Assembly: GCA_023257915.1 (NCBI GenBank)
Contig: JALRBB010000405.1
Span: 1-14,299 of the forward strand
Direction: 5' to 3'
Length of the DNA: 14,299 nt
Source of the DNA: Quisquiliibacterium sp.
GTDB taxonomy: Bacteria; Pseudomonadota; Gammaproteobacteria; Burkholderiales; Burkholderiaceae_E
In this document: positions 1 to 1,993 of the stretch, piece by piece
How the letters are laid out: every line of letters begins with the position of its first letter
How positions within the stretch are numbered: position 1 is the stretch's first letter
Made by a program: the position numbers and the translations under genes
The notes under the pieces: model-generated
Database searches by the model: none
Seen by the model: only the letters and a program-made list of their open reading frames with translations
Told to the model about the DNA's origin: nothing

Positions 1-290
1 TTCTCGAAATAGACCCGCATCACGATCTCCAGATCATCGCGCAGCCGCTCGCGCTCGACCACCAGCCGGCGCGCGTATTCCATCGCGGCGACCTGGTCAT
101 GGATCGAGCACGGTCCGATGATCACCAACAACCGGTCATCCATGCCGTGCAGGATCCGGTGAATCGCCTGGCGCGAGCCATAGGTGACGACCGAGGCCTT
201 CTCGCTGACCGGCAGTTCACGCAGCAGGTGCGAAGGCGGCGCGAGCTCCTTGATCTCGCGGATTCGAACGTCGTCTGTCGTTGCTCTCAT
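1..290 (-). CDS. aroG: DAHP synthase, class I (AroG-type), 5' part only
   Basis: 3-deoxy-D-arabino-heptulosonate 7-phosphate synthase condenses phosphoenolpyruvate and erythrose 4-phosphate, the first committed step of the shikimate pathway to Phe, Tyr and Trp. About 96 N-terminal codons are present before the gene leaves the left edge of the window. The translation contains the family signatures [40 protein letters not shown] and [10 protein letters not shown]. The GPCSIHD stretch belongs to the phosphoenolpyruvate/phosphate-binding part of the barrel in class I enzymes. Two in-frame ATGs lie side by side at 293 and 290. A GGAG motif sits 3 nt before the first and 6 nt before the second, so 290 is preferred, but 293 differs by only one residue. 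The gene has its own promoter and a Phe/Tyr attenuator upstream. Which aromatic amino acid inhibits the enzyme cannot be told from this part; the leader suggests Phe and/or Tyr control. Confidence 0.93.
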
Positions 291-334
291 CATTGGCTCC
301 AGGGCTTTTCGCCGTCCATAAGACTTGGGGTCCA

Positions 335-371
335 CAAAACAAAACCGCCGGCGCTTTTCAGGGCCGGCGGT
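335..371 (-). terminator. Intrinsic terminator of the aroG attenuator (3:4 hairpin)
   Basis: On the minus strand a 9-bp stem pairs 371-363 (ACCGCCGGC) with 352-344 (GCCGGCGGT). The loop is 10 nt (353-362), and TTTGTTTTG follows at 343-335. A GC-rich stem followed at once by a T-rich tail is the form of a Rho-independent terminator. It lies about 45 nt before the aroG start and after the leader-peptide stop, so it can only act as a conditional terminator for aroG. Confidence 0.82.
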
Positions 372-432
372 GTTCGGATTCGGTTCAGGCTTGGGTCAAG
401 CGCGATTCCGACTCCTCCCGCCGGCGGCAGGA
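363..432 (-). promoter_or_regulatory. Antiterminator and pause-hairpin segments of the aroG attenuator
   Basis: Three segments can pair in mutually exclusive ways. Segment 1 (432-426, TCCTGCC) pairs with segment 2 (422-416, GGCGGGA) through 7 bp including one G-U, with a 3-nt loop. It overlaps the last Phe-Pro-Ala codons of the leader peptide. The segment-2 region (425-418, GCCGGCGG) is also perfectly complementary over 8 nt to segment 3 (370-363, CCGCCGGC), which is the 5' arm of the terminator. A ribosome stalled on the Phe/Tyr codons would cover segment 1, release segment 2 to pair with segment 3, and so prevent the terminator. Fast translation would allow 1:2 and 3:4 and stop transcription. 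The pairings are read from the sequence; the regulatory logic is inferred from known trp, phe and his attenuators. Confidence 0.72.
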
Positions 433-476
433 AAGCCGAAGTAAAAAAACCCGTAAAAGAAGTTCGGTCGCGTCAT
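396..476 (-). CDS. Phe/Tyr-rich leader peptide of aroG (26 aa)
   Basis: A short ORF runs ATG (476-474) to TGA (398-396). Residues 5-16 read NFFYGFFYFGFP, so 8 of the 10 residues 6-15 are Phe or Tyr. The rest is polar or Ala/Gly-rich (AAGGRSRNRA at 17-26). The run of TTT, TTC and TAC codons is striking in such GC-rich DNA. The layout recalls PheL, the leader of E. coli pheA, and its position before a terminator and aroG fits an attenuation sensor for charged tRNA-Phe and tRNA-Tyr rather than a functional protein. No Shine-Dalgarno sequence precedes the ATG. The best promoter predicts transcription starting only 3-4 nt upstream, so initiation may be nearly leaderless. Expression is inferred, not shown. 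Confidence 0.82.
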   Translation of the reverse strand: MTRPNFFYGFFYFGFPAAGGRSRNRA

Positions 477-485
477 GATTGGCGC

Positions 486-514
486 AGTGTACCCAGCAAG
501 CGTGCGGTCGGCAA
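486..514 (-). promoter_or_regulatory. Predicted sigma70 promoter of the aroG leader
   Basis: Reading the minus strand, TTGCCG (514-509, 4 of 6 matches to TTGACA) is followed after exactly 17 nt by TACACT (491-486, 4 of 6 matches to TATAAT). It lies just after the tldD stop codon (533). Transcription would begin near 480-479, a few bases before the leader-peptide ATG at 476. No other good promoter was seen between the tldD stop and the leader, though read-through from tldD remains possible. Confidence 0.5.
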
Positions 515-532
515 GCGCAGACTTCGGGCGCG

Positions 533-1993
533 TCAGCCTGTGCCCCCAACCGTCAGCCCCTCGATCCGCAGCGTCGGCTGGCCGACGCCAACCGGAACGC
601 TCTGCCCGTCCTTGCCGCAGACACCGACACCCGAATCCAGCCGCATATCGTTGCCGATCATCGTGACGCGGGTTAGCGCATCCGGCCCATTGCCGATGAT
701 CGTCGCTCCCTTGACCGGATACTGGATACGCCCCTTCTCGACCCAGTAGGCCTCGGACGCCGAAAACACGAACTTGCCATTGGTGATGTCGACTTGCCCG
801 CCGCCAAAGTTGACCGCGTACAGACCGCGCTCGATCGAAGCGACAACCTCGCGTGGATCGTCCTTGCCGCCCAGCATGTAGGTATTGGTCATCCGCGGCA
901 TCGGCAGGTGCGCGAAGGATTCGCGTCGACCGTTACCGGTAACCGGCACCTTCATCAGGCGCGCGTTCAGCGAGTCCTGCAGGTAACCCTTCAGGACACC
1001 GTCTTCAATCAGGACATTGCACTGCGTCGGATTGCCCTCGTCGTCGATGTTCAGCGATCCGCGACGGTCACGCAGCGTGCCGTCATCCACCACGGTGACA
1101 CCCTTGGCGGCGACCCGCTTGCCCAGTTGGCCGCAAAACGCCGACGAGCCCTTGCGATTGAAGTCGCCCTCCAGTCCGTGTCCGATCGCCTCGTGCAACA
1201 GGACTCCGGGCCATCCGGGGCCCAGGACCACGCTCATCACGCCAGCCGGCGCCGGCCGTGACTCCAGGTTAACCAGCGCTGCATCGACCGCTTCGCGCAC
1301 ATAGCGATCGATCAGCGCATCGTCGAAATGCGCCAGGCCAAATCGACCGCCGCCGCCACTGGTGCCCTGCTCGCGCCGACCATTGGACTCGGCGATCACC
1401 GACACCGAAAGCCGGACCAGCGGCCGCACATCAGCGGCAATCAGCCCGTCGGAGCGGGCCACCAGCACGACGTCATGTTCGGCGGCCAGGCCGGCCATGA
1501 CCTGCACAACGCGCGGATCGCGGGCTCGCGCCAGCGTTTCGACCTTCTCGAGCAGTGCTACCTTGGCCGTGGCATCCAGACCGGCAATCGGGTCGGCGAC
1601 CGGGTACAGCGTACGGCCGGCTCCAGGGGTCAGCATGCCAGCCACCCGCCTTCGGCCAGCACCTTGCCGGGCGATGGTGCGGGTGGCCCGCGCGGCCGAC
1701 AGCAAGGCACCGGCGTGAATTTCATCGGAATACGCGAACGCGGTCTTATCCCCGCTGACCGCACGCACGCCAACGCCCTGGTCGATCGAGAAGCTGCCGC
1801 TCTTGACGATGCCTTCCTCCAGACTCCAGCCCTCGTGGCGGGTGTACTGGAAATACAGATCGGCGTAGTCGACACGGTGCTCGAACACCTCGGCCAGCGC
1901 CCGGGTCAGGTCAGATTCGTCAAGCCCGGCGGGTTCGAGCAGCACACTCCTGGCGATAGCCAGGCGGTCGATTCCTTCGTCGGCAATGTTCAA
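533..1993 (-). CDS. tldD: Metalloprotease TldD
   Basis: TldD is a zinc metalloprotease subunit that works with TldE/PmbA in proteobacteria. The pair trims unfolded peptides, matures some ribosomally made peptides such as microcin B17, and has been linked to CcdA degradation. The product is 486 residues, close to the 481 of E. coli. The zinc-binding HEAIGH motif is at residues 267-272 within GWPGVLLHEAIGHGLEGDFN. The conserved later Cys is at 459 in GVGVCGKDGQS, and the C-terminus GQPTLRIEGLTVGG is typical. The start is a TTG at 1993 with GGGAG about 8 nt upstream; no ATG occurs near the expected N-terminus. The gene lies 28 nt after the nitrilase stop and probably shares its transcript. Its partner TldE is not in the window and is usually encoded elsewhere. 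Confidence 0.96.
   Translation of the reverse strand: MNIADEGIDRLAIARSVLLEPAGLDESDLTRALAEVFEHRVDYADLYFQYTRHEGWSLEEGIVKSGSFSIDQGVGVRAVSGDKTAFAYSDEIHAGALLSAARATRTIARQGAGRRRVAGMLTPGAGRTLYPVADPIAGLDATAKVALLEKVETLARARDPRVVQVMAGLAAEHDVVLVARSDGLIAADVRPLVRLSVSVIAESNGRREQGTSGGGGRFGLAHFDDALIDRYVREAVDAALVNLESRPAPAGVMSVVLGPGWPGVLLHEAIGHGLEGDFNRKGSSAFCGQLGKRVAAKGVTVVDDGTLRDRRGSLNIDDEGNPTQCNVLIEDGVLKGYLQDSLNARLMKVPVTGNGRRESFAHLPMPRMTNTYMLGGKDDPREVVASIERGLYAVNFGGGQVDITNGKFVFSASEAYWVEKGRIQYPVKGATIIGNGPDALTRVTMIGNDMRLDSGVGVCGKDGQSVPVGVGQPTLRIEGLTVGGTG

What the first reader, a model, noticed from the sequence alone, without database searches (positions are those of the whole stretch)
335..514. A complete Phe/Tyr attenuator in front of DAHP synthase
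Within 180 nt there are, in order, a promoter, a 26-codon peptide with FFYGFFYFGF at residues 6-15, a pause-hairpin candidate overlapping the last control codons, an 8-bp antiterminator pairing and a 9-bp GC-rich terminator with TTTGTTTTG. aroG follows. E. coli controls its DAHP synthase genes through TyrR and TrpR repressors; ribosome-mediated attenuation by Phe/Tyr codons is well known for pheA and pheST but I do not recall it as an established control of aroG. A run of TTT/TTC/TAC codons is very unlikely by chance in DNA this GC-rich. It would put the first step of the whole aromatic pathway under charged tRNA-Phe and tRNA-Tyr supply.
Basis: partly seen in the sequence, partly recalled or inferred. 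Interest (0 to 1): 0.78.

Follow-up and report, generated by a model that had tools for sequence, protein, structure and literature searches.

The report
Aromatic leader-peptide attenuator controlling aroG
In front of the gene for the first enzyme of aromatic amino-acid synthesis sits a small RNA switch, conserved across many related bacteria, that most likely measures phenylalanine and tyrosine supply by how fast a ribosome reads a tiny Phe/Tyr-rich peptide.

Summary
The minus strand at window 514-335 carries a promoter-like pair, a 26-codon ORF (MTRPNFFYGFFYFGFPAAGGRSRNRA), an 8-bp antiterminator and a 9-bp terminator with a T run, then aroG (ATG 293). Its Phe/Tyr density exceeds all 5000 shuffles. 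It is conserved: 125 of 145 aroG upstream regions from relatives hold such an ORF (reverse strand 6 of 145); the script finds a terminator after 124 of those 125. Region 2 keeps GGCGG while read in all three frames; regions 2, 3 and 4 change together, at essentially one column. Folding by ribosome position gives the expected switch. I conclude: a ribosome-mediated transcription attenuator of DAHP synthase, experimentally untested. The kind is known: C. glutamicum has an aroR Phe-Tyr-Phe attenuator before aroF (described in PMC11802643). New here, as far as my searches reach, are the family in Burkholderiales, the near-leaderless leader ORF in the window's lineage, and Trp codons in 61 of 124 leaders (none in this window). 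No Rfam match; no TyrR-family match in any of 41 genomes searched.

The parts
486..514 (-). promoter-like pair TTGCCG - 17 nt - TACACT; -10 ends 9 nt before the leader ATG
   Evidence: Sequence; same arrangement (gap 6-10 nt) in 31 of 33 scored loci of the window's close set; below threshold of the generic scan
396..476 (-). leader peptide ORF, 26 codons + TGA: MTRPNFFYGFFYFGFPAAGGRSRNRA
   Evidence: aromatic-rich ORF at this place in 125 of 145 unique loci
432..461 (-). control codons: residues 6-15 (6 Phe, 2 Tyr); Phe codons TTT in 4 of 6
409..438 (-). region 1:2 pause hairpin candidate (CGGCT/AGTCG 438-434 with 413-409 and TCCTGCC/GGCGGGA 432-426 with 422-416)
   Evidence: fold; 79.7% of cells paired in 34 relatives, weaker than the other helices
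418..425 (-). region 2, GCCGGCGG, antiterminator 5' arm, inside the leader ORF
363..371 (-). region 3, ACCGCCGGC, shared by antiterminator and terminator
344..352 (-). region 4, GCCGGCGGT, terminator 3' arm
335..343 (-). T-rich tract TTTGTTTTG of the intrinsic terminator
   Evidence: hairpin with T-rich tail found by the script in 124 of 125 loci
1..293 (-). aroG, DAHP synthase (N-terminal 97 codons; cut by the window end); GGAG at 300-297
   Evidence: NF006723 AroG E=1.3e-36 and TIGR00034 E=2.1e-31 over the N-terminal part; as a fragment it stays below both curated cut-offs
533..1993 (-). tldD, upstream neighbour
   Evidence: NF008006 TldD, 666.9 bits, over its cut-off

Best explanation
A ribosome-mediated transcription attenuator that couples aroG (DAHP synthase) expression to charged tRNA-Phe and tRNA-Tyr. 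RNA polymerase starts just upstream of, or at, the leader ATG. A ribosome follows on the leader ORF. If Phe- or Tyr-tRNA is scarce it stalls at codons 6-15, leaving region 2 (425-418) free to pair with region 3 (370-363); the terminator cannot form in time and aroG is transcribed. If supply is good the ribosome runs to the stop codon (398-396), covers region 2, region 3 pairs with region 4 and transcription ends near 335. Shown: the anatomy, its conservation, the pairing changes, and the predicted folding switch. Inferred: transcription start, translation of the leader, termination, and the amino-acid response.
For: Aromatic-rich ORF in 125 of 145 unique loci versus 6 of 145 on the reverse strand and 277 of 7250 dinucleotide shuffles. 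A terminator-like hairpin after 124 of these 125 by script (in L037 and L040 it is not the standard one). Region 2 complement of region 3: mean 6.3 nt versus 4.3 in mononucleotide shuffles, 81 of 123 loci at p<=0.05. Region 3 A with region 4 T in 74 of 74 and G with C in 34 of 34; region 2 base pairs with region 3 in 86 of 113. In 34 near relatives the antiterminator has 92.3% of cells paired (best slid control 58.2%) and the terminator 90.2% (62.5%), with 9 and 10 cells changed on both sides, 0 of 500 shuffles as high. GGCGG lies in all three reading frames (67/30/16 loci; at least 10 changes on the AroG tree), so the RNA motif rather than the peptide tail is kept. Ribosome-position folding: P(region 3 paired upstream in nascent RNA) 0.91 at control codons and 0.30 at stop; drop over 0.2 in 119 of 122 loci; 0.95 against 0.65 for shuffled spacers, 60 of 60 loci drawn from these 122. 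Of 57 covariance-model hits at E<=1e-7 in 101 genomes, 55 lie within 400 nt upstream of a DAHP synthase match; the other two are at contig ends and look the same. Twenty more distant DAHP synthase genes I picked lack it.
Against: No transcript, term-seq or reporter data. At equilibrium the terminator is favoured even with a stalled ribosome (mean 0.81), so the switch relies on co-transcriptional order. In the window the antiterminator already falls to 0.60 and 0.47 when the ribosome is at residues 14 and 15. 27 of 113 loci do not pair at the variable region 2 base, mostly Oxalobacteraceae-type leaders that use GGCGGT with ACCGCC instead; 42 of 123 loci do not reach p<=0.05 for the 2:3 complement. 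Double changes occur at one column set only: the number of pairs with double changes and of pair types does not exceed shuffles; 8 changes on the tree, sign test underpowered. The pause hairpin is only weakly supported. 20 of 145 loci showed no leader by script (one, L053, has the motif in a longer frame), and 18 of 25 families in my order-wide sample showed none.
Confidence: 0.93

Rival explanations
1. The hairpin is simply the terminator of the upstream gene tldD and the Phe/Tyr ORF is a by-product of T-rich sequence.
For: tldD lies upstream on the same strand and ends about 160 nt before the hairpin.
Against: An aromatic-rich ORF is found in 125 of 145 loci against about 4% in controls; Tyr and Trp codons are not T-only; the promoter-like pair stands between tldD and the hairpin; a region 2 complementary to region 3 is kept inside the ORF.
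Confidence: 0.02
2. The leader peptide itself matters: a nascent-chain arrest peptide, or a peptide or terminated leader RNA acting in trans (as reported for S. meliloti peTrpL), instead of or in addition to charged-tRNA sensing.
For: Very regular FYFYFF runs in Burkholderia-type leaders; a trans-acting attenuator peptide is described in PMC7298713 (search listing and abstract start only).
Against: The part after the control codons is read in different frames in different clades while the RNA motif is kept; the order of F, Y and W varies, which argues against a specific arrest motif.
Confidence: 0.04
3. A metabolite-binding riboswitch or protein-binding leader that happens to overlap an ORF.
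For: An intrinsic terminator and alternative pairings are present.
Against: No Rfam family reaches its gathering score in the window; with lax thresholds only weak matches below gathering appear in the window stretch and in nine related loci; in the alignment of 34 the conserved columns are mainly the pairing arms.
Confidence: 0.01

Closest known systems
aroR leader of the aroF operon, Corynebacterium glutamicum (Neshat et al. 2014; seen only as described in passages of PMC11802643 and PMC4046766)
   Same: Leader peptide with Phe-Tyr-Phe upstream of a DAHP synthase gene; transcription raised under Phe limitation.
   Different: Actinobacterium; three aromatic control residues named there against eight here; there Tyr availability had no effect (PMC11802643); sequence homology not tested.
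pheA (pheL) and pheST attenuators of Escherichia coli (structure recalled; named in passages of PMC11802643)
   Same: Phe codons, overlapping 2:3 and 3:4 hairpins, intrinsic terminator.
   Different: Control the terminal Phe branch or Phe-tRNA synthetase, not the first common step; E. coli DAHP synthase genes are under TyrR and TrpR repression.
uORFC-13-1 motif upstream of aroF in Acholeplasma (PMC8632094, passages)
   Same: uORF with Phe codon(s) and a terminator before DAHP synthase; predicted attenuation.
   Different: Prediction in another phylum, at least one Phe residue; no relation shown.
Predicted cis-regulatory RNAs before aroF and aroH in Shewanella (PMC2659441, passages)
   Same: Predicted leader RNA before DAHP synthase genes; aroF listed as an attenuator sensing Tyr-tRNA on the strength of E. 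coli work of 1980.
   Different: Computed motif, no aromatic leader peptide for these two genes described in the passages seen.
Leaderless leader peptides of actinobacteria, e.g. trpL1, leuL, ilvL of Streptomyces lividans (PMC8079986, passages)
   Same: Leader ORF starting at the transcript 5' end.
   Different: Other amino acids and genes; here leaderlessness is inferred from promoter position only.

Membership tests
Ribosome-mediated (trp/phe-type) transcription attenuator | Short upstream ORF rich in codons of the end product | tested here: met
   8 aromatic residues in 10; 125 of 145 loci, controls about 4%
Ribosome-mediated (trp/phe-type) transcription attenuator | Intrinsic terminator between leader ORF and gene | tested here: met
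   Present by sequence in the window; 124 of 125 loci by script, two of them with a non-standard hairpin
Ribosome-mediated (trp/phe-type) transcription attenuator | Alternative antiterminator using the same region 3, placed so that a ribosome at the control codons leaves it free and one at the stop codon does not | tested here: met
Ribosome-mediated (trp/phe-type) transcription attenuator | Region 1:2 pause hairpin | tested here: inconclusive
   Forms in the window fold; 79.7% of cells paired, modest margin over best slid control 62.7%
Ribosome-mediated (trp/phe-type) transcription attenuator | Termination relieved by shortage of the charged tRNA | not testable with these tools
   needs expression data
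A registered Rfam leader family (any of the 4227 models) | Match at the curated score | tested here: not met
   0 in the window; weak matches below gathering only
C. glutamicum aroR attenuator | Common descent | not tested
   AroR sequence was not fetched; resemblance is of function and codons only
TyrR-controlled DAHP synthase (E. coli type) | A TyrR regulator in the genome | tested here: not met
   TIGR04381 in 0 of 41 genomes; of 14 control genomes it rings in E. coli alone. The window genome itself is a 77.6% complete draft

The most novel reading that the evidence does not exclude
In Burkholderiales the gate to the whole shikimate pathway is set not by TyrR-like repressors but by one translation-coupled RNA sensor that pools the supply of two or, in about half of the leaders, all three aromatic amino acids (Phe, Tyr, Trp) in a single leader peptide; in many lineages the leader is leaderless, so promoter, start codon and sensor are fused; and the switch has travelled with aroG outside the order.
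Probability: 0.4. Interest if true: 0.65.

Novelty: new member of a known kind. Interest (0 to 1): 0.5.

Why it matters
It would explain how a group of bacteria in which no TyrR was found adjusts the entry to aromatic synthesis, adds a widespread RNA element that has no Rfam model to annotation libraries, and gives a multi-aromatic sensor that could be studied or used. It also shows one regulatory solution at DAHP synthase in both actinobacteria and Burkholderiales, so its origin (common or independent) becomes testable.

Tried and rejected
Covariance-model hits away from aroG: of 31 weaker hits (E above 1e-7, up to 1e-3), many match only the terminator end of the model; I opened three (G033:C58, G086:C1, G084:C3) and found no aromatic leader before DAHP synthase. 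G001, G007, G072, G080, G084 and G086 count among the 63 positive genomes on such hits alone. Three class-level hits (L240-L242) were likewise chance. L148 has an aromatic ORF without terminator and was dropped as chance; L037 (frame-shifted leader, wrong hairpin) and L040 (the script chose another hairpin; the model finds the standard one in G011, whose contig has the same length) were dropped from the 122 loci; one search dropped L148 and L037 only. Independent-pair tests on the tree were underpowered. Rfam and NCBIfam gave no leader family. pheA of the draft genome was located but its leader was not analysed; trpE was not found in the draft. Supplementary Table S3 of PMC5688073 (82 short 5'UTR transcripts of B. 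cenocepacia) could not be read here; it might already hold this leader as a short transcript.

Full report
What is there. On the minus strand between tldD (1993-533) and aroG (ATG 293) lie a promoter-like pair TTGCCG-17-TACACT (514-486), a 26-codon ORF (476-396) with six Phe and two Tyr among residues 6-15, and a 9-bp terminator (371-363 with 352-344) followed by TTTGTTTTG (343-335). Region 2 (425-418, GCCGGCGG) inside the ORF is identical to the core of region 4 and can pair with region 3 (370-363). The generic scan found neither promoter nor terminator: the promoter scores 8 of 12 and the loop has 10 nt. The gene matches AroG/AroFGH models over its N-terminal fragment, below the full-length cut-offs. 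The window lies in a draft genome (77.6% complete) with two PF00793 places: this aroG, and one whose translation looks like KdsA (my reading, recalled). Type II DAHP synthases were not searched.

Sampling. 80 regions are the best 80 of 578 confirmed places in genome contigs, capped, so biased to close relatives. 70 more are from 70 of the 84 genomes with a match among 101 relatives. Of these 150, 145 were unique by their last 300 nt; at least two genomes are still counted twice.

Chance. 125 of 145 hold an ORF with 5 or more F/Y/W in 10 residues; 86 of 145 reach 7 or more. The reverse strand gives 6 of 145 and 0 of 145, dinucleotide shuffles 277 of 7250 and 4 of 7250. The window reaches 8; its 5000 shuffles stop at 6. 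Of the 20 misses, L053 does carry the motif in a frame longer than the script allowed.

Structure. For 124 of the 125 leaders the script finds a following hairpin with a T-rich tail, as a rule (A/G)CCG(C/T)C(A/G)...GGCGG(T/C); L037 and L040 got other hairpins. The longest perfect complement of region 3 in the stretch after the control codons averages 6.3 nt, mononucleotide-shuffled 4.3; 81 of 123 loci reach p<=0.05, 42 do not. Of 124 loci, 3 had non-standard terminators and 8 lacked an exact GGCGG in region 2. In the other 113, region 3 A meets region 4 T in 74 of 74 and G meets C in 34 of 34; five loci have other bases, three of them mismatched. Region 2 can pair at that base in 86 of 113; the 27 others are mostly Oxalobacteraceae-type. 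GGCGG begins in frame 2, 0 or 1 of the ORF in 67, 30 and 16 loci. In the alignment of 34 near relatives the stretch around GAGTCGGGAGCGCG is read as DESGAR in some (L005) and MSRER in others (L004). Antiterminator cells pair in 92.3% (slid controls at most 58.2%), terminator 90.2% (at most 62.5%), pause hairpin 79.7% (at most 62.7%). Cells with double changes exceed all 500 shuffles for the first two, but they lie at one column set, and the count of pairs with double changes and of pair types does not exceed shuffles. The region 3 and region 4 bases each change at least 8 times on a quick AroG tree of 121 rows; only 2 independent supported pairs were available, both concordant, too few for a test.

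Switch. I masked the RNA up to 12 nt past the A-site codon and folded the rest. In the window the chance that region 3 is paired upstream in the nascent RNA is 0.90-0.92 with the ribosome at residues 5-13, 0.60 at 14, 0.47 at 15 and 0.34-0.44 from 16 to the stop. Over 122 loci it is 0.91 at control codons and 0.30 at the stop codon; the drop exceeds 0.2 in 119. As more RNA is free upstream, I shuffled the spacer in 60 of the 122 loci: real 0.95, shuffled 0.65, real higher in 60 of 60. At equilibrium with region 4 present the terminator wins in both cases (0.81 and 0.98), so the switch must be kinetic, as held for known attenuators (recalled).

Near-leaderless start. In the window's close set the -10-like hexamer ends 6-10 nt before the leader ATG in 31 of 33 scored loci (34 given; L120 had no candidate), at 9 nt in the window, with TTG at the -35 place; mean score 7.1 of 12 against 5.2 in shuffles. 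Over 124 loci TAnnnT ends 5-10 nt before the start in 53 (shuffles 7.7%), with a TTG at -35 spacing in 42 (0.5%); 38 of 49 in L083 and later, 15 of 75 in the rest. In many Burkholderia- and Oxalobacteraceae-type loci the TAnnnT or TATAAA element lies farther upstream. Shine-Dalgarno-like matches are rare (76 of 125 have none of even 3 nt), whereas aroG itself has a 4-nt match in 20 of 34. A transcript starting at or within a few nt of the ATG is inferred, not shown.

What is sensed. In the densest 10-residue windows of 124 leaders Phe occurs in 124, Tyr in 119 and Trp in 61. This window has no Trp. Presence of Trp changes at least 16 times on the tree. Phe is written TTT in 411 of 592 leader codons against 47 of 156 in nine ORFs of the window; the former are from many genomes, so the contrast is only indicative.

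Where it occurs. A covariance model gives hits in 63 of 101 relatives at E<=0.001, six of them on weak, mostly partial hits alone. Of 57 hits at E<=1e-7, 55 lie within 400 nt upstream of a DAHP synthase match, and two are at contig ends, one with a TldD-like frame before it and one with an aroG-like start after it. In an order-wide draw of 300 genomes 167 had an AroG match at E<=1e-28; I examined 57 loci picked from these: 22 of 57 have the leader, in 7 of 25 families (f4, f8, f12, f22, f29, f31, f49); the terminator pattern used there, which asked for ACCG, was seen in 17 of the 22 and missed the five of f4; two further ORFs without a terminator were taken as chance. One f19 genome outside this sample has the leader (L138). 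In the class draw 8 of 274 genomes matched at E<=1e-6: three in the order including the window's own, two of one family outside the order that carry the whole element before aroG (L238, and L239 with a GTG start), and three chance. Twenty more distant DAHP synthase genes picked (mostly second copies; in G007 and G010 the only one found) lack a leader; one further copy, found by the model, has one (L177), and so does a DAHP synthase of f49 (L243).

Regulatory setting. The TyrR family model is absent from 41 of 41 genomes and rings in E. coli alone among 14 controls. PMC5343134 (passages) says TrpR and TyrR are conserved in many gammaproteobacterial groups and absent in other classes.

Prior work. 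Passages of PMC11802643 and PMC4046766 describe the C. glutamicum aroR leader (Phe-Tyr-Phe) before aroF, enhanced on Phe limitation, Tyr without effect; Neshat 2014 itself was not held. PMC8632094 (passages) predicts a Phe uORF before aroF in Acholeplasma and cites an old hypothesis for E. coli aroF. PMC2659441 (passages) lists predicted RNA motifs before Shewanella aroF and aroH. Term searches in the main texts of PMC2965389, PMC1262725, PMC10175445, PMC10987360 and PMC5688073 found no aroG; PMC5688073 reports 82 short 5'UTR transcripts of B. cenocepacia in a table I could not read. Ten paper searches listed no paper that I recognised as reporting an aroG attenuator in Burkholderiales; I opened only the papers named here. 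Subscription journals are largely missing and Vitreschak 2004 was not held, so an earlier report cannot be excluded.

Verdict. A conserved, trp/phe-type attenuator of DAHP synthase by anatomy and comparison; ordinary in mechanism, new as a family in this group as far as searched, with two features (near-leaderless start, pooled aromatic sensing) worth testing.

Noticed in passing
L177 (reverse complement 1407-1516): A second DAHP synthase copy in a relative (G057) has its own aromatic leader MSRFTLFFAYFWFSRRPGAGEDSA and terminator, unlike 20 other more distant copies tested.
   Followed up: partly
L238 and L239 (f63, outside the order): Complete aromatic attenuator before aroG in two genomes of another order (L239 with a GTG start); transfer or deep ancestry is open.
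   Followed up: partly
L037, L042, L053 (Caballeronia and a Candidatus Burkholderia): The frame after the control codons differs from that of close relatives, giving longer or altered peptides, while the control codons remain; may be decay or tolerance.
   Followed up: no
window 1-2: aroG is cut by the contig end; no other type I DAHP synthase was found in the 77.6% complete draft.
   Followed up: partly
window 432-461: Phe control codons favour TTT over TTC although the window is 65% GC; slower decoding or freedom from structure could be the reason.
   Followed up: partly
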